Assembly (NCBI RefSeq): GCF_010365105.1
Contig: NZ_JAAFGZ010000005.1
Span: forward strand, 1-64,000
Direction: 5' to 3'
Origin: Polaromonas sp.
Lineage (GTDB): Bacteria; Pseudomonadota; Gammaproteobacteria; Burkholderiales; Burkholderiaceae_C
Length of the DNA: 64,000 bases
Below, piece by piece: positions 9,821 through 23,166 of the stretch. The notes beneath the pieces are model-generated. The model was not told where the DNA came from, made no database searches, and worked only from the letters and a program-made list of their open reading frames with translations. Positions within the stretch are counted from its first letter, which is position 1. Each line of letters opens with the position of its first letter. The translations under genes were made by a program, and so were the position numbers.

Positions 9821-10476
9821 AAAGTCCAGCCCATCTTTTTGTCAAGCGTGTACGCAGCGCCTGCAGCCAGTCTGCCGTCCCTGCTGCTGCCTTGCTGCCT
9901 GAGCAGCGCGCTGGCCAGTGCCTGCTCCTCGCGCTGCACCAGAAAAGCATCGTCCTGCTGGCGCAATTTTCTGACCGCCACCCGGCCGGAGAAAGGGAAA
10001 AAGTTGATTCGGCGCGGCAGCTTTCCGCGCAAGTCCTGTGCGGCAATACGGATACGCTTGTCCAGCAGGTAGCGCAGCACGAAGTCGGCATTGCGTTCGC
10101 CAATGTTGAGCAGCGTCATGCTGGCCAGCACGGCCCCGCCGCCAAAAACCTTGGCTTCCAGGCGCTCGCGCCGCGCCCCGGCCCGGACCACTTCGCTGAG
10201 CAGCACCTGCATCGCATGCGCGCCATAGCGCATGGCGGCGGTGGCATCAAAAAGCAGCGGGTCGGCTGCATCGGGCAGCATGAAGTGGTTCATGCCGCCA
10301 ATGCCCGAGACGCTGTCACGCAGGCAGGCCGCCACACACGAACCGAGCACAGTCGTCAGCACCATGTCTTCGGACGTGACGTAATACTCCCCCGGCAGCA
10401 GCTTGACTGCCGACAGGCTGAATTCACGGTCGAAATAATGACGCGTGGCCAGGGGTTCGGCTTCTGCCGTGATCAT
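9817..10476 (-). CDS. cheD: chemoreceptor glutamine deamidase CheD
   Basis: Deamidates glutamines of chemoreceptors, acting with CheB and CheR in adaptation. The 219-residue protein has the cysteine-hydrolase core: Cys47 in [11 protein letters not shown] and His64 in GGMNHFMLP, with the KVFGGG block following. It is coupled on both sides by 4-base overlaps to cheR upstream and cheB downstream. The last 30 residues beyond the deamidase fold look unstructured. Confidence 0.95.
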
Positions 10477-11342
10477 GCCGCGCCTCTGGACAGGCTGTTG
10501 GCCAGGCCATAGACCGTCTGGCCGCGCAGCCGCAAGGTCTGCTGGGCAAAGGAAAAGTTTTCCGAATGCCCGGCAAACAGCAGGGCATGGGGCTTCATCA
10601 GGGGGACAAAGCGCTGCAGGATTTTTTCCTGCGTCGGCTTGTCGAAATAGATCATCACATTACGGCAAAAGATGGCATCAAACGGGCCTTTGAGCGGCCA
10701 TTTCGGATCAAGCAGGTTAAGTTGCGAAAACCTGACCAGGGCGGCCACTTCCGGCCGTATCCGCACCTTGCCGGCATGCGCGCCGGAGCCCTTGAGGAAA
10801 AACCGCTTCAGGCGTTGCGCAGGCAGCTTGCTGGCCTGTTCCAGCGTGAAAATGCCGTCCACCGCCTTGGCCAGCACCTGCGTGTCGATGTCCGTGGCCA
10901 CCACGCTGCAAGCGCTGGCGCGGCTTCCCAGTGTTTCGATCAGCGTCATCGCGATCGAATATGGCTCCTCACCGGTCGATGCGGCCGAGCACCAGATGGT
11001 GACCGGCTGCGCAGACTGGAGGACATGCTCGGCAAGCAGGGGGAAATGGTGCGCTTCGCGAAAAAAGGCCGTCAGGTTGGTGGTCAGCGCATTGGTGAAC
11101 AGCTCCCACTCGTGGCTGCGCGGATCGGCCTCCAGAAAGCCCAGGTAGGCCGAAAACTCGCGCATCTCCAGTTCGCGCAGGCGGCGCGACAGGCGGCTGT
11201 AGACCATCTGCCGCTTTTGCACGCTCAGGGAAATGCCGGCTCGCTGGTGAATCAGCAGGCGAATCCGGGCAAAGTCCGTGTCGGTCAACAGAAAATCGGG
11301 GCCTGCCGGCGAAAGCGCAGCAGCGCGGGGGGATGGATTCAT
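10473..11342 (-). CDS. cheR: chemoreceptor methyltransferase CheR
   Basis: S-adenosylmethionine-dependent enzyme that methylates chemoreceptor glutamates. The 289-residue protein has the N-terminal helical CheR_N region and the SAM-binding motif [16 protein letters not shown], followed by [13 protein letters not shown] and the terminal [10 protein letters not shown] block. It is the first gene of the che/flh run. A 166-base gap separates it from the HDOD gene upstream and probably holds the promoter, although I saw no clear sigma-28 motif. cheA, cheW and receptor genes are not in the window. Confidence 0.96.
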
Positions 11343-16382: not shown

Positions 16383-17792
16383 ATGAATCAATTCGACAAA
16401 AAATCCCAAGCCTGGTCTGCCCTGTTTTCCGAGCCCATGAGCGACCTGGTCAAGCGCTACACCTCCAGCGTGTTTTTTGACAAGCGGCTGTGGCAGGCCG
16501 ACATTGCCGGCTCGCTGGCGCACGCCGACATGCTGGCCGCGCAAGGCATCATTGCCCCCGCCGACCATGACGCCATCCAGTACGGCATGGCGCAAATCAC
16601 GCGCGAGATCGAAGCCGGCGAATTTGAATGGAAGCTCGACCTTGAGGACGTTCACCTGAACATCGAGGCGCGGCTGACCCAATTAGTGGGCGACCCCGGC
16701 AAGCGCCTGCACACCGGCCGCTCGCGCAACGACCAGGTCGCCACCGACGTCCGACTGTGGCTTCGTGGCGAGATCGACCTGATTGGCGGCCTGCTGATTG
16801 ATCTGCAAAAGGCGCTGGTCGAGATGGCCGATAAAAACGTCGAAGTGATTTTGCCCGGCTTCACCCACCTGCAGGTCGCCCAGCCGGTCAGTTTTGGCCA
16901 CCACATGCTGGCCTACGTCGAGATGTTCAGCCGCGACGCCGAACGCATGAATGAAGTGCGTCGCCGGGTGAACCGCCTGCCGCTGGGCGCCGCCGCCCTG
17001 GCCGGCACCAGCTACCCGCTGGACCGCGAGCGCGTTGCCACCACCTTGGGCATGGTTGACGAGCAAGGCCAGCCGCAGGTCTGCCAGAACAGCCTGGACG
17101 CCGTCAGCGACCGCGACTTTGCGATTGAATTCACGGCAGCTGCGTCGCTGGCGATGGTTCACATCAGCCGCTTCAGCGAAGAGCTGATTCTCTGGATGAG
17201 CCAGAACTTCAGTTTCATCCACATCGCCGACCGCTTCACCACCGGCTCGTCGATCATGCCGCAGAAGAAAAACCCCGACGTGCCCGAACTGGCACGCGGC
17301 AAGACCGGCCGCGTCGTCGGCCACCTGATGGGCCTGATCACGCTGATGAAGGGCCAGCCGCTGGCCTACAACAAGGACAACCAGGAAGACAAGGAGCCGC
17401 TGTTCGACACCGTCGATACGCTGAAGGACACGCTGCGCATCTTTGCCGACATGGTCGGCGGCATCACCGTCAAGCCTGAAGCGATGGAACGCGCCGCCCT
17501 GCGCGGCTACGCCACCGCCACCGACCTGGCCGACTACCTGACGAAAAAAGGCCTGCCCTTCCGCGACGCCCACGAAACCGTCGCCCACGCTGTCAAGGCC
17601 GCCACGGCGCATCAGGTGGACTTGTCGGAACTGCCGCTGGCGGTGTTGCAGGAGTTCAACCCGTCGATTGAAAAGGATGTGTATGACGTGCTGAGCCTGC
17701 GTGGTTCGCTGAATGCGCGGAATATTCTGGGTGGTACGGCACCCGTGCAAGTGCGGGCGCAGATTGCGCGGCACCGGGCGCGGCTGGGGTGA
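16383..17792 (+). CDS. argH: argininosuccinate lyase
   Basis: Cleaves argininosuccinate to arginine and fumarate, the last step of arginine synthesis. The 469-residue protein has the fumarase/aspartase superfamily signature [11 protein letters not shown] (about residues 285-295), the TGRSRNDQ substrate loop and HxLxxAQ-type [16 protein letters not shown] block. ATG 16383 was chosen because the family begins near here and upstream codons lack a binding site. The codon use and GC match the core genome, in contrast with the cassette block that begins about 250 bases downstream. Confidence 0.96.
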
Positions 17793-17827
17793 TTTTTCTG
17801 GGGTCAGCGGGGCTTTGTTGCTGATGA

Positions 17828-17874
17828 TTATTCGGGTTCAGCTTATGCGGACAGCATTGTCCTCGCCCGAATAA
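17828..17874. repeat. long inverted repeat at the argH/cassette boundary
   Basis: TTATTCGGG (17828-17836) and CCCGAATAA (17866-17874) are perfect inverted copies 29 bases apart. Inside them GGACA (17849-17853) pairs with TGTCC (17858-17862), giving a nested stem. No T-run follows, so a classical terminator is not supported. It lies 36 bases after argH and about 170 bases before the first cassette boundary. Confidence 0.5.
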
Positions 17875-18043
17875 CTCAATGTCATCGTATTTAGCGGATT
17901 CCGCCGTGCGAAGTTCGTCCGTGAAATTTTTGGTTTGCCTGAATGCTGAACAGCTATGGCTTCAAATGGAAAATCTGGACTATCGAGTAAATGGCACGGC
18001 ATTGGGGAGTGCTGTGGCAATAAGATGATGTCGTCCAATTAAC

Positions 18044-18050
18044 GTTAAAT
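18044..18050 (+). mobile_element. integron-type recombination core site GTTAAAT (left edge of cassettes)
   Basis: GTTAAAT preceded by AAC fits the GTTRRRY core at which integron integrases recombine. The first cassette gene starts four bases later (ATG 18054), as is typical for cassettes. I could not identify a matching left arm, so it may be the edge of an attI or the right end of an eroded attC. Confidence 0.45.
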
Positions 18051-18053
18051 CTC

Positions 18054-18566
18054 ATGAGCAGACCATCCTCCCCATTCGCCAAAGCAAACACGCTGAAGGC
18101 ACTTTTGCTGTTCGTCACGGCCGAAAAAAAGTACCTCGATTTAGCGGTCGCGCATGGAATGGCAGTCAACTTGCAAGCACCAGACTTGCGCCGAGCCTTT
18201 GACCAAGGCCAGTTTCCAAAGGTGGGATGGGAGAACGAGGCGCGGGAATCCGCGCATAAGTTTGCAGCTGAGCTTCGTAGAGGAATTGCATCTGCTTTCA
18301 TCGCAACTTTTCTTGTCGATGGTGTCGGTGTTGCCATCGCCTGGATGCTTGGCAAGGTGGGAGCGCACATGAATGCTGATCCAGGCAAGATTTTGAGTGC
18401 ATCAGGCGGCTTCCTTGCGGCATGGGCCACGCTTTGGGAGCTTGGCGGGTACGCGAAGACATACAGCGGCGAAGCGCTTCACGAGGTACTCCATCCGCTG
18501 TTCTTTCGCATTGCCTTTCTTCCTGGTGTAGCGTTAGCAACGGCAGGGCAACTCTGGTGGCAATGA
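18054..18566 (+). CDS. cassette-borne hypothetical membrane protein 1
   Basis: A 170-residue protein of unknown function. Residues 1-75 are soluble and helical in appearance; hydrophobic stretches lie at about 78-101 (GIASAFIATFLVDGVGVAIA), 113-134 and 149-169. The gene fills its segment exactly: it begins 4 bases after a GTTRRRY core and its stop is one base before the attC-like site at 18568. GC content looks lower than in argH, indicating acquisition. No family recognised. Confidence 0.7.
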   Translation: MSRPSSPFAKANTLKALLLFVTAEKKYLDLAVAHGMAVNLQAPDLRRAFDQGQFPKVGWENEARESAHKFAAELRRGIASAFIATFLVDGVGVAIAWMLGKVGAHMNADPGKILSASGGFLAAWATLWELGGYAKTYSGEALHEVLHPLFFRIAFLPGVALATAGQLWWQ

Positions 18567-18567
18567 C

Positions 18568-18625
18568 GCCTAACCAATCATTGCAGTGGATGGGCTTCGC
18601 CGTCCACTGAATTCAAACGTCAAGC
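18568..18625 (+). mobile_element. attC-like site 1
   Basis: 58 bases opening with the 7-base core GCCTAAC (fits RYYYAAC) and closing with GTCAAGC (one mismatch to GTTRRRY). Between them CAGTGGATGG (18584-18593) and CCGTCCACTG (18600-18609) form a 10-pair stem with one G-T pair and a GCTTCG loop. Size, core placement and hairpin match integron attC sites. It starts one base after the stop of the preceding gene. Confidence 0.75.
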
Positions 18626-18717
18626 AGATGAAAAATGCCACACTCACACACCCGCTACCCGTACAAGACGATTACAGTGCTTGATATCTGAAAAACATAG
18701 ACTACGTGGAGAAAGTT

Positions 18718-19107
18718 ATGACAGACAAGAAAAGTATCCTGGTGATTGGGGTGCAACCTACGCTCATGGATTTTTCTGATCCAGACTACGCCGCTTACCC
18801 TGGCATGAACGCGGCGAAGGTATTGGCCGGCCTCAAAGCTTCTGAAGACAGCTTGACTGACCGAGGCTACGACGTGCAAATGTGTCTTACCGATTTTGGT
18901 GAAACTGCTGAAGCAGTTGTTCGGGACCAACTGGAACAAAAACGGTTCGATTGCATCGTCATTGGGGCAGGCATACGAACAATCGCAGGAAACTTTTTAT
19001 TGTTTGAAAAGTTGATAAACGTTGTACACGCGCACGCTCCTCAAGCCAAGCTGTGCTTCAACACTGGGCCGACTGACACCACTGAGGCAGTACAGCGCTG
19101 GCTCTGA
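18718..19107 (+). CDS. cassette-borne conserved hypothetical protein 2
   Basis: A 129-residue soluble protein. It opens with a hydrophobic strand and glycine (KKSILVIGVQP) and has a second strand FDCIVIGAGIRT, suggesting a small Rossmann-like or flavodoxin-like alpha/beta fold (inference). The phrase FLLFEKLINVVHAHAPQAK looks strongly conserved; I believe relatives exist in unrelated bacteria but cannot confirm it here. The start is ATG 18718 with GGAG seven bases upstream; ATG 18706 is in frame but less well placed. Flanked by attC-like sites on both sides. Confidence 0.75.
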   Translation: MTDKKSILVIGVQPTLMDFSDPDYAAYPGMNAAKVLAGLKASEDSLTDRGYDVQMCLTDFGETAEAVVRDQLEQKRFDCIVIGAGIRTIAGNFLLFEKLINVVHAHAPQAKLCFNTGPTDTTEAVQRWL

Positions 19108-19144
19108 AATGCAAGACGACTTTGTGCTTTCGCAAGGTAGAGTT

Positions 19145-19202
19145 GCCTTACCATTCGTTGCAACGGACTGCCTTCGACAGCGGTGAAACTCCAACGTTAG
19201 TC
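19145..19202 (+). mobile_element. attC-like site 2
   Basis: Another 58-base site: GCCTTAC at the left (one mismatch to RYYYAAC), AACGTTAGTC at the right, and a central TTCG loop flanked by ACTGCC and GACAGC. Its length equals that of attC-like site 1. It lies 37 bases after the stop of cassette gene 2. The right core deviates from GTTRRRY at one base. Confidence 0.7.
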
Positions 19203-19281
19203 ATCAAGGAGCGCCTGCGATATAGACAAAAGCCAGGCAGAAGTCGTTTGCGATGCCGTAGCAGAGGAAGCACAAAAACAG

Positions 19282-19319
19282 GAAACCGGGCGCAAGAACA
19301 CTGCAACTCGCCCGGTTTC
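19282..19319. repeat. 11-base perfect inverted repeat before a cassette gene
   Basis: GAAACCGGGCG (19282-19292) and CGCCCGGTTTC (19309-19319) pair perfectly around a 16-base loop, ending four bases before the ATG at 19324. On the minus strand the stem is followed by TGTTTTTGTG, so it could terminate minus-strand transcripts. On the plus strand it could hinder ribosome access to the gene. Confidence 0.5.
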
Positions 19320-19323
19320 GATC

Positions 19324-19704
19324 ATGTACCGGTTTCCCGAACTCAATTCATTCGAGGCCTGGGAGCGTCCAATCGTCATAGCCAAGTCCACAAAGCGCGC
19401 AATGCGCAATAAGTCAGTTCTGCTGGCCTGGGCTGTCTCCACCGCAGTCGTTCTGGTGCTGGCCTACTTTGCAATGACTGCGTACAAAGGCACTTCACTT
19501 TTCCTGCTCTGGCCAGGCGCACTTGCAGTCTGTGCGCCCATGTACTTCTATCGTCGCAAAGTCATTCGGAAGTTGGTTTACAAGCGCTCACGGCTGCGTG
19601 TTCGTAGCAAAAGCGAAGAGTCCCCCAGTGACGCCTGGCCCTTTTTTCAGGCGGACCCGCCTGCGACGATTCGGTCCACTGAAGTCAAACGTCAAGTTGC
19701 ATAA
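19324..19704 (+). CDS. cassette-borne hypothetical membrane protein 3
   Basis: A 126-residue protein with two hydrophobic helices (about 32-54, LLAWAVSTAVVLVLAYFAM, and 59-77) followed by a strongly basic stretch (RRKVIRKLVYKRSRLRVRS). No family recognised. The last 25 codons run through a degenerate attC-like site, so the C-terminus is encoded by recombination-site sequence, as happens in some cassettes. No good ribosome binding site is visible; a hairpin immediately precedes the start. Confidence 0.55.
   Translation: MYRFPELNSFEAWERPIVIAKSTKRAMRNKSVLLAWAVSTAVVLVLAYFAMTAYKGTSLFLLWPGALAVCAPMYFYRRKVIRKLVYKRSRLRVRSKSEESPSDAWPFFQADPPATIRSTEVKRQVA
19633..19697 (+). mobile_element. degenerate attC-like site 3
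   Basis: It starts with GCCTGGC (two mismatches to the left core) and ends with GTCAAGT. The tail CCACTGAAGTCAAACGTCAA is nearly identical to the tail of attC-like site 1 (CCACTGAATTCAAACGTCAA), which shows common origin. GGACC (19653-19657) pairs with GGTCC (19673-19677). It overlaps the end of the preceding gene. Confidence 0.55.
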
Positions 19705-19722
19705 ACGACCCTGTTTTTCCCT

Positions 19723-20385
19723 ATGCGTCCAGAAGTCGAATACCCATCAAATCGATTGCAAACCGTAGCCGGCAAAGCGCTGGCATCTCTGTGCTTGGCC
19801 TATGCGGCCGTCTTGGGGGTCGGACTGCTCACCCTGCCGTCGCCAGACAAGCAGATTCAGGATCCCTGGTTCACGCTCATGGAAATTCTGATTCTCGCAA
19901 TTGCACCAGCAATGGTTGCATTCACGGTAGGCATCCACTCGGCCGCATCTGCGGAGAGAAAACCTTTGGCACTGCTTGGCGTGATCTTCATGAGCATGTG
20001 TGCCGCGCTCACTTCATCAGTTCATTTTGCGATATTGACGCTCAGCCGCCAGCCCGAGATGGCAGCTACCGCATGGGCAGGGCTGGTCTTCTCTTTCACC
20101 TGGCCGTCTGTGGTCTACGCCCTGGACATTTTGGCGTGGGACGTATTCTTTCCTCTGGGGGCCTTGTTTGCTGCGTTTGCAGTTCCGGGCACTGGGCGCA
20201 GGCGGTGGGTGCGCCAACTGCTCTACGCGAGTTCTGCTCTTGCATTCCTTGGGCTATTGGGTATACCGTTAGCCAACATGAACATCAGGAACGTCGGAAT
20301 CATTGGCTATGTGGTTCTTTTCCCGATGGCCGCTGCTCTGTATGGCACCACGTTCAAACCGTCAGGCACCCAGGGAGCGACCTGA
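19723..20385 (+). CDS. cassette-borne hypothetical multi-pass membrane protein 4
   Basis: A 220-residue protein with about six predicted membrane helices (near 17-36, 50-70, 82-103, 115-145, 160-180 and 185-207) and a short soluble N-terminus. I recognise no family; the overall layout resembles small DUF-type membrane proteins often found in integron cassettes. It begins 25 bases after the attC-like site 3 core and its stop adjoins the attC remnant at 20385. Codon use includes more A/T-ending codons than the flanking core genes. Confidence 0.7.
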   Translation: MRPEVEYPSNRLQTVAGKALASLCLAYAAVLGVGLLTLPSPDKQIQDPWFTLMEILILAIAPAMVAFTVGIHSAASAERKPLALLGVIFMSMCAALTSSVHFAILTLSRQPEMAATAWAGLVFSFTWPSVVYALDILAWDVFFPLGALFAAFAVPGTGRRRWVRQLLYASSALAFLGLLGIPLANMNIRNVGIIGYVVLFPMAAALYGTTFKPSGTQGAT

Positions 20386-20424
20386 GCACTTGGTCGAGCG
20401 GACCCACTTCGGCATGCCGCTTGA
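20386..20424 (+). mobile_element. attC remnant 4
   Basis: Directly after the stop codon, TCGAGCGG (20394-20401) pairs with CCGCTTGA (20417-20424), allowing one G-T pair, around a TTCGG-containing loop. The GGTCGAGCGGACCC string resembles attC left arms. No right-hand GTTRRRY core follows, so the site appears truncated and probably inactive. Confidence 0.4.
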
Positions 20425-20532
20425 GGGCCCTGTTTCATTTTCGGGATTGCGTTGCTTCTGGCTTGAGTTCCATGCGCCTTCGATTTGATTTGAAGGCTTT
20501 TGTGTCATTCAGACTTTTCACAAGGACCAAAA

Positions 20533-20997
20533 ATGCATCGTTCAAAACTAATCGCAGCGACGCTGGTCTCATGCCTGCTCGGATGTACATCCGCTATCGC
20601 AGCAGATCCGACCACTGCAAATGACGCCTTCAAGCCCTACAAGCTCGTCGGAGGCTGGGACTTCACAAGCGGAAACAGCGGGCGCAAATACTCCGGCGAT
20701 GTCCGGATTGAAGTCAACACACTTGCGGCGAATGGCGTCATGCATGGAAAGGTTTCCTTCGACGGACGACAGACAAATGACAATTGCAGCACACGTGGCG
20801 TCTTCAATGATGATCCGGTTGAGGCCGAAATTCGAAAGACAGCGGTTGGCTACGATGTGTCGTTCATGCTGAAGTGTTCGAAAGGAGAAAGTCCTCAATT
20901 GCGCCAATGGACACTTGCGTGCGAGGGCGACACCTGCACCAGACCCGAAGTTCTTCCGAATGGCAAGGGCATGCTCACAGTCAAACAAGTGGACTGA
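20533..20997 (+). CDS. cassette-borne putative lipoprotein 5
   Basis: A 154-residue exported protein. The signal peptide (residues 1-18) ends in a lipobox, SCLLGC, with Cys18 the predicted lipidated residue. The mature part is soluble, has three further cysteines (in DNCSTRG, MLKCSKG and ACEGDTC) and reads like a beta-rich domain, but I recognise no family. The start is ATG 20533 with AAGGA eight bases upstream; an upstream in-frame codon at 20500 would disrupt the signal peptide. An eroded attC tail follows. Confidence 0.75.
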   Translation: MHRSKLIAATLVSCLLGCTSAIAADPTTANDAFKPYKLVGGWDFTSGNSGRKYSGDVRIEVNTLAANGVMHGKVSFDGRQTNDNCSTRGVFNDDPVEAEIRKTAVGYDVSFMLKCSKGESPQLRQWTLACEGDTCTRPEVLPNGKGMLTVKQVD

Positions 20998-21027
20998 CGA
21001 CCCTTGCCACTGAAGTCAACGCTCAAC
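20989..21027 (+). mobile_element. eroded attC-like tail 5
   Basis: GTGG (20989-20992) can pair with CCAC (21007-21010), and the tail CCACTGAAGTCAACGCTCAA matches the tails of sites 1 and 3 except for a small deletion and a changed core. It is the rightmost clear trace of the cassette block. Confidence 0.4.
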
Positions 21028-21149
21028 CCCTTTCTCAAACGAAACGCCAACGGCAGGCCACCAGGCATGTTCTGTGAAACGCAGCATTTCTCCCAGTCCA
21101 GGCCTGGCATCCTTCCGTTGTCACCCGCTTGTCTTGAATCCCAGATCTT

Positions 21150-21461
21150 ATGAAATCACCCGTTGTCCTTAGCGCCGGAGCACAGGCCGCAGTCGCTGCG
21201 CTCATCATGCTGGGCATGGTCGGCGGCTCTCTGATCGCGGCCTACTCCGGGTTCGGCACGTCGCCGCGCCATGGAGGTCCGTCAACTTTCGTCCCGGCAC
21301 CTCAGGCTTACTTGCTGGCTGCCACGATGTACGGCATGTCTGCCATCGGCTTGCTCGCCTTGCTCAGCAACCGAAAAGCCTCGCGCACTGTGATCACCCT
21401 TGCTGCGGTCGCGTATGCCATTGCTGCAGCAGGCCTGACAGCGGTGTTGTCTCCGAACTGA
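21150..21461 (+). CDS. small hypothetical membrane protein
   Basis: A 103-residue protein with three hydrophobic segments (about 12-32, 49-68 and 77-97) and no charged domain of note. It resembles short integron-cassette membrane proteins but I do not recognise a family. It lies after the last attC trace; no attC-like site follows within 21462-21648, where the only structure is a 6-base hairpin TTCCTG/CAGGAA at 21514-21531. Whether it belongs to the cassette block is uncertain. Confidence 0.6.
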   Translation: MKSPVVLSAGAQAAVAALIMLGMVGGSLIAAYSGFGTSPRHGGPSTFVPAPQAYLLAATMYGMSAIGLLALLSNRKASRTVITLAAVAYAIAAAGLTAVLSPN

Positions 21462-21648
21462 GACACTGTGGGCAAAGGGGTGTCTGGCACATGTGTCGTT
21501 TTGATTTGGCGGCTTCCTGAATGAACAGGAACCGGATTTCAATGATTTCAATCACAGCTATCAACAAGTAACGGAATTTAAACTTTTAAATGTGTCGTCA
21601 ACCCGTCTTTGAATCCCGCATGAATGTGCGTTGATCAGTCAGGCTTCC

Positions 21649-21969
21649 ATGAACCCACCCACTACTCCCGACGGGCGCTACTTTGTCGTTCGCGGCCGGC
21701 TGTGGCGGGCCACCCATCCATCCCTGCCTGAAGACGTGCGCGGCGCACTGGTGCAGCAACTCATGAACGCCCGGCGCGCCGTGAAGACGGCTCTTGGCGC
21801 CCAAGACATAGCCAGACTTGCGCAAGCCCGGGCAGAAGTCAACGCAGCGAAAATCGCGCTGGGCGAACGCGGCCCGGTCTGGTGGACCGATGGCGCCAGG
21901 GATTTCAACCGGCACCTAGTCAAAAATACACCGTATGCCGAGTGGTATCAACGCCTTGAGGGGTCCTAG
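21649..21969 (+). CDS. conserved small hypothetical protein
   Basis: A 106-residue soluble protein starting MNPPTTPDGRYFVVRGRLWR. It contains an Ala/Arg-rich helical middle (LMNARRAVKTAL) and a conserved end (GERGPVWWTDGA, then HLVKNTPYAEWY). I recall close relatives as a widespread uncharacterised protein in Burkholderiales; function unknown. ATG 21649 is preferred to the in-frame ATG at 21631 because the conserved part begins there. GC returns to core-like levels, so I place it outside the cassette array. Confidence 0.75.
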   Translation: MNPPTTPDGRYFVVRGRLWRATHPSLPEDVRGALVQQLMNARRAVKTALGAQDIARLAQARAEVNAAKIALGERGPVWWTDGARDFNRHLVKNTPYAEWYQRLEGS

Positions 21970-21987
21970 ACATGAGAACCACATCCA

Positions 21988-23166
21988 ATGAATTTGCCTT
22001 CCCGTGACGGGTTCAACGCTTTGTTGAGTGCTGACTGGTGGCGCGGTTTCCTGCCGGCGCGTACCCGTATCAACAACCGCGAGCGGCTTCGCATCGTGGC
22101 AGGCTCGCTTTTCGGAATTTTCCTGACCGGGCTGCTGTGCTTTTATTTTGGCCAGAGTTCAGTGGTGCAAAAACTTCCCTGGCTGGTCGCACCGCTGGGG
22201 GCGAGCGCGGTGCTGGTGTTTGCCGTTCCTGCCGGGCCGATGTCGCAGCCATGGCCCGTGGTGGGTGGCAACACCTTGTCGGCGCTGGTGGGCATTGCCG
22301 GCGTACACGGCATGCACCTTCTGGGCTCGCCGGAGTTGGCCGCTGCGCTGGCCGTGGCTACGGCCATTGCCGTGATGCTGGCGATGCGCTGCCTGCATCC
22401 GCCCGGCGGCGCCATGGCTCTGATGATGGTAATGGGGGGAATCCGTGAGCCGGCATTTGCGCTGTACCCGGTATTGCTCAACTGCCTCTTGCTGGTGCTG
22501 GCCGGCATTGGCTACAACAATGCCACGCGCCGGCACTACCCGCACAGTCAGCTAAAGCCTGCCGCGGCGCCCACTTCACCCACCGACCAGATGCTCGACG
22601 CGGACCTGGACGCGGTGCTGGCACGTTACAACCAGGTGCTGGACGTGAGCCGTGACGATCTCAAGGCGCTGCTGGTGGAGACCCAGCTGCGCGCTTACGA
22701 GCGCAAGCTGACCCAGATGCGCTGCGCAGACATCATGTCCCGCGACCTGGTGACTGTGGCGTTTGACACGCCACTGCAGCAGGCGTGGGCGCTTCTGCGC
22801 GAACGCCGCATCAAGGCCCTGCCGGTGGTGGACAAATCCTTTCGCATCGCGGGCATCATCACACTGGCCGATTTCATGCGCGCGGCTGAACTGGATGTCT
22901 ATGAAGGCTTTGGCGACAAGTTGCGAAATCTGGTGCGCACGACAGCCAATGTCTTCTCCAGCAAGCCCAAACTGGTCGGCCAGATCATGACGCGCAACGT
23001 GCGGGTGGCCAGCATGGAGAGGTATCTGGTGGAACTGCTGCCGCTGTTTGGCAGCACGGGCCATCACCATATTCCCATCGTGGACGAGGACAAACGCCTG
23101 GTCGGCATGATCACCCAGTCCGACCTGGTTGCTGTGCTGGGAAGGGCCGCTGACCCTGCGGCCTAA
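21988..23166 (+). CDS. HPP family membrane protein with CBS domain pair
   Basis: A 392-residue protein. Residues 30-190 are an HPP domain: four to five membrane helices and the name-giving CLHPPGGA motif (about 137-144). Residues 240-392 hold two CBS modules (MRCADIMSRDLVTVAFDTPL and GQIMTRNVRVASMERYLVEL), which usually bind adenine nucleotides. A plant/cyanobacterial HPP protein transports nitrite, but the substrate for HPP-CBS proteins is not established. The gene starts 18 bases after the preceding stop, so the two are probably co-transcribed. Confidence 0.85.
   Translation: MNLPSRDGFNALLSADWWRGFLPARTRINNRERLRIVAGSLFGIFLTGLLCFYFGQSSVVQKLPWLVAPLGASAVLVFAVPAGPMSQPWPVVGGNTLSALVGIAGVHGMHLLGSPELAAALAVATAIAVMLAMRCLHPPGGAMALMMVMGGIREPAFALYPVLLNCLLLVLAGIGYNNATRRHYPHSQLKPAAAPTSPTDQMLDADLDAVLARYNQVLDVSRDDLKALLVETQLRAYERKLTQMRCADIMSRDLVTVAFDTPLQQAWALLRERRIKALPVVDKSFRIAGIITLADFMRAAELDVYEGFGDKLRNLVRTTANVFSSKPKLVGQIMTRNVRVASMERYLVELLPLFGSTGHHHIPIVDEDKRLVGMITQSDLVAVLGRAADPAA

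What the first reader, a model, noticed from the sequence alone, without database searches (positions are those of the whole stretch)
18044..21027. Integrase-less integron cassette cluster (CALIN-like) next to argH
Seen: a GTTRRRY core four bases before the first gene; two 58-base sites with near-consensus cores and a TTCG-containing hairpin loop; three more sites in stages of decay; one stop codon per site placed at or near its left edge; all genes on one strand; lower GC than the flanks. Established: this is the architecture of integron gene cassettes with attC sites. No intI integrase or Pc promoter is visible, so the array is either an orphan cluster or was seeded by an integrase elsewhere. 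The five or six cassette proteins are all unknown.
Basis: partly seen in the sequence, partly recalled or inferred. Interest (0 to 1): 0.85.

Follow-up and report, generated by a model that had tools for sequence, protein, structure and literature searches.

The report
Integron landing site lacking its integrase
Next to argH this bacterium carries a gene-capture platform (an integron) that kept its landing site and some captured genes but has no recombinase gene beside it, and related genomes carry several such orphan platforms with at most one full recombinase gene found.

Summary
A covariance model built only from attC sites of other loci finds 18568-18625 (50.6 bits, E 6e-10) and 19145-19202 (26.6 bits, E 4e-4). 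The third site is at chance level; the fourth and fifth get no support. The GTTRRRY at 18044 is the core of an attI: 17917-18047 matches a 135-base platform (intI start to attI) modelled from six other copies (E 2e-8, the only hit in 64 kb). So this is more than a plain CALIN: it is an integron platform without intI. The genome has one full-length intI, on another contig beside accD, with its own attI and array, and a third, intI-less platform on contig C22. In 87 genomes of the genus the platform occurs 26 times in 7 genomes, up to 10 per genome; 2 of 26 have an intact intI beside them. Best reading: integrons that lost intI, leaving dispersed attI platforms that an integrase elsewhere could still use. 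Against present use here: both attC sites have a damaged core, and two orthologous platform pairs elsewhere keep their attI end no better than spacer. New variant of a known kind.

The parts
16383..17792 (+). argH, left flank
   Evidence: TIGR00838 592 bits; homology to relative G019 ends at 17788
17828..17874 (.). hairpin TTATTCGGG..CCCGAATAA between argH and the platform; role unknown
   Evidence: sequence and fold
17918..17943 (+). left block of the platform; in complete integrons of this type it lies at the intI start codon
   Evidence: 27 of 31 bases shared with C68 over 17913-17943; 2 mismatches to the pattern
17917..18047 (+). whole intI-less platform unit
   Evidence: model R2, 30.8 bits, E 2.1e-8, only hit up to E 10
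18021..18026 (+). TAAGAT, possible -10 of a cassette promoter (not shown)
   Evidence: TANNAT at this place in 17 of 26 units; no promoter called here
18030..18050 (+). attI, core GTTAAAT at 18044-18050
   Evidence: 16 of 18 bases as in C68 attI; 2 of 19 mismatches to the consensus
18054..18566 (+). cassette 1 gene, 170 aa, unknown
   Evidence: open frame; no family
18568..18625 (+). attC1, R' core damaged (GTC)
   Evidence: R1 50.6 bits, E 5.9e-10
18718..19107 (+). cassette 2 gene, 129 aa (133 from GTG 18706), unknown
   Evidence: open frame; relatives in 9 other genomes of 399 in the family sample
19145..19202 (+). attC2, R'' core damaged (TAC)
   Evidence: R1 26.6 bits, E 3.9e-4
19324..19704 (+). 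possible cassette 3 gene, 126 aa
   Evidence: open frame
19633..19697 (+). possible decayed attC3
   Evidence: R1 10.4 bits, E 3.1, not significant
19723..20385 (+). gene 4, 220 aa; cassette status unproven
   Evidence: open frame
20533..20997 (+). gene 5, about 154 aa; cassette status unproven
   Evidence: open frame
21150..21461 (+). gene 6, 103 aa; cassette status unproven
   Evidence: open frame
21647..23166 (+). right flank: small gene from 21649 and HPP-CBS gene 21988-23166
   Evidence: homology to G019 resumes at 21647; TM_HPP and CBS domains

Best explanation
The locus is an integron platform without an integrase gene. Shown: a 135-base unit that in complete integrons of this type lies between the intI start codon and the first cassette is present at 17917-18047 and ends in an attI with a GTTRRRY core; on the same strand follow two recognisable attC sites and cassette genes; no intI remnant is detectable between argH and the unit. 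The same genome has a complete integron beside accD and a third, intI-less platform on C22. Inferred: the argH copy comes from a complete integron that lost intI; its cassettes entered at attI by IntI-catalysed attI x attC recombination (established integron chemistry); the array has since decayed. Inferred and untested: IntI made from the accD locus could still act in trans on this attI and on the C22 platform.
For: Independent attC model. Independent platform model. The window was picked for its attC sites, yet its left block keeps 25 of 29 bases against C68 and its attI 16 of 18, while the middle is at chance identity. Of 18 loci in other genera with the unit, 16 have intI or a part of it by tblastn and 16 an attC by R1, each of the 18 at least one of the two. 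Single intI over cut-off in this genome. Truncated intI 5' ends beside 2 of 24 solo units show that intI loss happens.
Against: No intI remnant at argH, so loss is inferred, not seen. No relative with a complete integron at argH in the sample, so the insertion itself is not shown. 17 of 24 solo units have no attC that R1 finds, partly because contigs end there. Only the first two of six genes are followed by a supported attC.
Confidence: 0.75

Rival explanations
1. Distributed integron: the intI-less attI platforms are working satellites served in trans by one IntI, not relics.
For: This genome and G070 have one intact intI and three units each. Two orthologous solo platforms (C22 / G070:C5:3369080 and G003:C32 / G066:C67) keep place and spacing but carry different cassettes. 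C22 shares a cassette with C68, 89% over 218 bases. 11 of 24 solo units have the attI motif with at most 4 of 19 mismatches, against 2 of 2000 random windows. G467, of another genus, has an intI and a separate solo platform with three attC sites.
Against: In both orthologous pairs the attI end is no better conserved than spacer (56% against 55%, 38% against 65%) and one partner's core is broken. Differential loss from an older array would also give different cassettes. Window attC cores are damaged. G003, with 10 units, shows no intI; G467's intI has a stop inside.
Confidence: 0.25
2. Plain CALIN made by cassette insertion at a non-attI genomic site (attG type) by the remote integrase.
For: An integrase is present elsewhere in the genome; such insertion is described in the literature (mentioned in PMC12444791, passages).
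Against: A true attI with its flanking block is present at 17917-18047.
Confidence: 0.05
3. Segmental duplication of the Pint-attI-cassette part of the C68 integron into the argH site, never with intI.
For: Single intI, no intI remnant at argH; the unit's left edge coincides with the intI start in most copies.
Against: The middle of the unit is at chance identity to C68, so it is no recent copy; none of the six window genes matches the C68 array by tblastn at E 0.05.
Confidence: 0.15
4. Chance palindromes among ordinary genes.
Against: Two independent models, E 6e-10 and 2e-8.
Confidence: 0.01

Closest known systems
[quoted passage not shown] IntegronFinder term)
   Same: Two attC sites, no intI nearby, cassette genes on one strand; [quoted passage not shown]
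   Different: Has a recognisable attI and the block next to intI; attI is stated to be poorly described outside class 1 integrons.
Sedentary chromosomal integron of Burkholderiales (here: C68 beside accD; G070; other genera)
   Same: Same left block, attI and attC types.
   Different: No intI in cis; short, decayed array.
Xanthomonas CALINs away from the ilvD integron
   Same: Arrays at fixed loci away from the single intI; about half of genomes (PMC12444791, passages).
   Different: The passages I saw do not report a dispersed attI platform unit; those loci were not compared here.
Integrons with lost or broken intI in Xanthomonas and Treponema
   Same: intI inactivated or gone, attC left (PMC12444791; PMC3607928; passages).
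   Different: Here several platforms per genome, in trans to one intI.

Membership tests
Complete integron | intI in cis | tested here: not met
   No integron integrase in the argH-HPP interval
Complete integron | attI | tested here: met
Complete integron | attC-bearing cassettes | tested here: met
   Two sites
Complete integron | cassette promoter Pc | tested here: inconclusive
   Conserved TANNAT, no promoter called on the + strand
CALIN | at least two attC sites | tested here: met
   Own model R1; IntegronFinder itself was not available
CALIN | no neighbouring intI | tested here: met
attG-type cassette insertion | insertion at a site that is not attI | tested here: not met
   attI present
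Distributed integron (proposed) | several attI platforms, one intI in the genome | tested here: met
   draft assembly of 68 contigs
Distributed integron (proposed) | recombination at a solo attI by IntI from elsewhere | not testable with these tools
   Only indirect: different cassettes at two orthologous platform pairs

The most novel reading that the evidence does not exclude
Some Burkholderiales run a distributed integron: one trans-acting IntI and several dispersed intI-less attI platforms, often placed just after the end of a codirectional gene, so that cassettes can land at many chromosomal sites. The argH locus is one such platform, now decaying.
Probability: 0.25. Interest if true: 0.82.

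Novelty: new variant of a known kind. Interest (0 to 1): 0.6.

Why it matters
CALINs are about as common as complete integrons in the IntegronFinder 2.0 survey (2961 against 2760; PMC9024848), and their origin is hard to read because attI is rarely recognisable outside class 1. Here attI is recognisable, so an intI-less array can be traced to a true integron platform. Up to 10 such platforms per genome with at most one intact intI found raises a direct question: are they relics, or do several platforms share one integrase?

Tried and rejected
Rfam at gathering threshold: no match in the window. A simple core-plus-hairpin scan gave many false sites and was replaced by the covariance model. attG-type insertion: set aside because. 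intI remnant in 17790-17945: not found. Empty site in relatives: G019 keeps argH and the right flank but has another gene in between; the 18 other relatives compared have no match to the interval at E 0.01 (20 regions were fetched; G010 was left out). So no clean empty site. Plasmid origin: no match to the intI DNA in PLSDB at E 1e-20, and only short weak matches to the unit. Cassette function: nothing better than E 0.03 for the six proteins in Pfam, NCBIfam, PHROGs and PADLOC, and nothing below E 0.3 in PDB sequences, where only two of the six were tried. Cassette 2 relative at 90% identity in another genus: no attC beside it by R1, so it gives no support for cassette mobility. Selection on solo platforms: two orthologous pairs speak against it for the attI end. 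A structure job for cassette 2 was accepted but not finished; nothing is claimed from it. One search failed on wrong coordinates of mine and was repeated with the right ones.

Full report
Where it is. The window is contig C38:1-64000 of a 4.5 Mb genome in 68 contigs. argH is 87-89% identical to loci titled Polaromonas and Variovorax in the three best rows, so the host is probably Polaromonas or a near relative; this is inference. The array lies inside a 197,820-base contig, not at a contig end.

The observation. I built a covariance model (R1) from 20 attC sites, 12 from the C68 array of this genome and 8 from relative G070, with no window sequence. With filters off over 64 kb it gives 18568-18625 at 50.6 bits (E 5.9e-10) and 19145-19202 at 26.6 bits (E 3.9e-4). 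The other seven hits have E 2 or worse, among them 19633-19697 (E 3.1). E-values from this tool are rough. Each of the two has one damaged core.

The integrase. TIGR02249 finds one integrase over cut-off in this genome, on C68 (444 bits for its two segments). The open frame is 9836-10909 and ends 5 bases from a carboxyltransferase gene that I read as accD. On its other side R1 finds 17 attC sites at E 0.002 or better, 12 of which made the model. Relative G070 has 96% identical IntI in the same place.

The attI. Sequence at the C68 intI start and attI recurs in the window: 17913-17943 matches at 27 of 31 bases (score 42; highest of 500 shuffles 32), and 18030-18047 at 16 of 18. I then modelled the unit from six other copies (C68, C22, G070, G024, G003, G066). 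The window scores 30.8 bits at 17917-18047, E 2.1e-8, the only hit up to E 10. The middle of the window unit is at 44-53% identity to the other copies, near chance (shuffles average 44%, maximum 52.5%), while the left block keeps 25 of 29 bases against C68.

The unit belongs to integrons. In a sample of 399 genomes of the family, 17, own included, have the unit at E 0.001. For 18 places in other genera a locus was given. 16 of these 18 show intI or a part of it by tblastn (in L268 about 1 kb away, in L263 a fragment, L259 and L269 cut by contig ends, L260 in three pieces), and 16 of 18 an attC by R1 at E 0.1. Each of the 18 has at least one of the two. In ten of them with near-full-length intI, the alignment ends 12-70 bases from the unit.

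Dispersed platforms. In 87 genomes of the genus the unit occurs at 26 places in 7 genomes, each with E 0.0024 or better: G003 10, G066 6, G000 3, G070 3, G024 2, G061 1, G092 1 (six of the 26 made the model; large samples are scored with stricter filters, so weak copies can be missed). 2 of 26 have an intact intI beside them, C68 and G070:C5:639729. Of the other 24, two keep a truncated intI 5' end (G024:C9:3162268, tblastn E 4e-7; G070:C5:3711394, DNA score 42 against 28), and G003:C342 may (41 against 26); the window does not (20 against 24). 16 of 24 begin within 130 bases after a codirectional open frame of 90 or more codons; in two of these, C206 and C180, a longer frame on the other strand makes that doubtful. 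Random expectation was not computed. 11 of 24 have the attI motif with at most 4 mismatches of 19, against 2 of 2000 random pieces of the window, which may include the true site. TANNAT stands 3-4 bases before the motif in 17 of 26 units. The six R1 hits (E up to 2) in the 23 loci all lie downstream on the unit's strand; with the window that makes 7 of 24 solo units with an attC, and 17 without, partly because contigs end there.

Who has an integrase. Of the seven genus genomes with units, G000 and G070 have intI over cut-off. G003, G061 and G092 show only matches below cut-off, of the kind that the same search also gives in 14 of 14 control genomes; G024 has a 75-aa fragment with a stop, and G066 a fragment with a stop. 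Several are fragmented assemblies, so absence is not certain. G467, of another genus, has an intI with a stop inside on C25 and a solo platform with three attC sites on C123.

Is it used in trans? For: two orthologous solo platforms keep their place beside a nitronate monooxygenase-like and a transglutaminase-like gene but carry different cassettes, and C22 shares a cassette with C68 at 89% over 218 bases. Against: in both pairs the attI end is no better conserved than spacer (56% against 55%, 38% against 65%), although the left block is a little better (69%, 76%), with the upstream gene at 92-93%; one partner's core is broken; differential loss would also give different cassettes; and the window's attC cores are damaged. 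I therefore prefer integrons that lost intI and give the distributed-integron reading 0.25.

The argH site. Of 20 argH-downstream regions taken from the genus, 19 were compared with the window; only G019 keeps the right flank, with another gene instead of the array and a broken HPP gene. R1 found no attC in the 10 of these regions that I scanned, and none of the 25 other unit places is at a located argH (argH was not located in G066, and G092 was not). The array is private to this genome in the sample.

Literature. CALINs are described as proposed degraded integrons (PMC9024848, passages). Xanthomonas genomes carry CALINs at loci other than ilvD, and mobilisation in trans by a functional IntI is stated (PMC12444791, passages). 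Treponema phagedenis keeps attC sites after intI loss (PMC3607928, passages). A MITE review (PMC10969869, passages) gave nothing on integrons in Polaromonas. I found no paper on dispersed solo attI platforms in the listings (one search was swamped by unrelated words); the library holds open-licence papers only.

Noticed in passing
L153:8312-8542 (G014): A second, 56% identical fragment of the argH C-terminus lies about 3 kb downstream of argH, as if something had inserted at the argH end.
   Followed up: no
window 17790-21646 and L137-L156: The interval after argH differs in each of the 19 relatives compared; it looks like a variable site in this genus.
   Followed up: partly
window 17828-17874: A strong hairpin (TTATTCGGG..CCCGAATAA) between argH and the platform; no similar DNA for this part was listed in the genus sample.
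   Followed up: partly
G070:C5:3711394-3711478 (L252): A platform with an intI 5' remnant is cut off after 85 bases and a transposase-like frame follows.
   Followed up: partly
G075:C24:31569-32540: An intI of a different type (53% identity to the C68 IntI) lies about 5 kb upstream of argH on the same contig.
   Followed up: no
L009:9811-9836 and copies: The left block holds a palindrome TTTAGG-TTTG-CCTAAA just ahead of the intI start; it is kept across genera and in many intI-less copies, so it may do more than serve intI.
   Followed up: partly
L241 (G066:C180) and L239 (G003:C249): The two units share about 40 bases of left flank, the gene end at C249 recurring as a fragment at C180, which hints at how units spread.
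   Followed up: no
L272:1304-1745 (G369): Cassette 2 gene at 86% DNA identity over 442 bases in another genus, without an attC by R1.
   Followed up: partly
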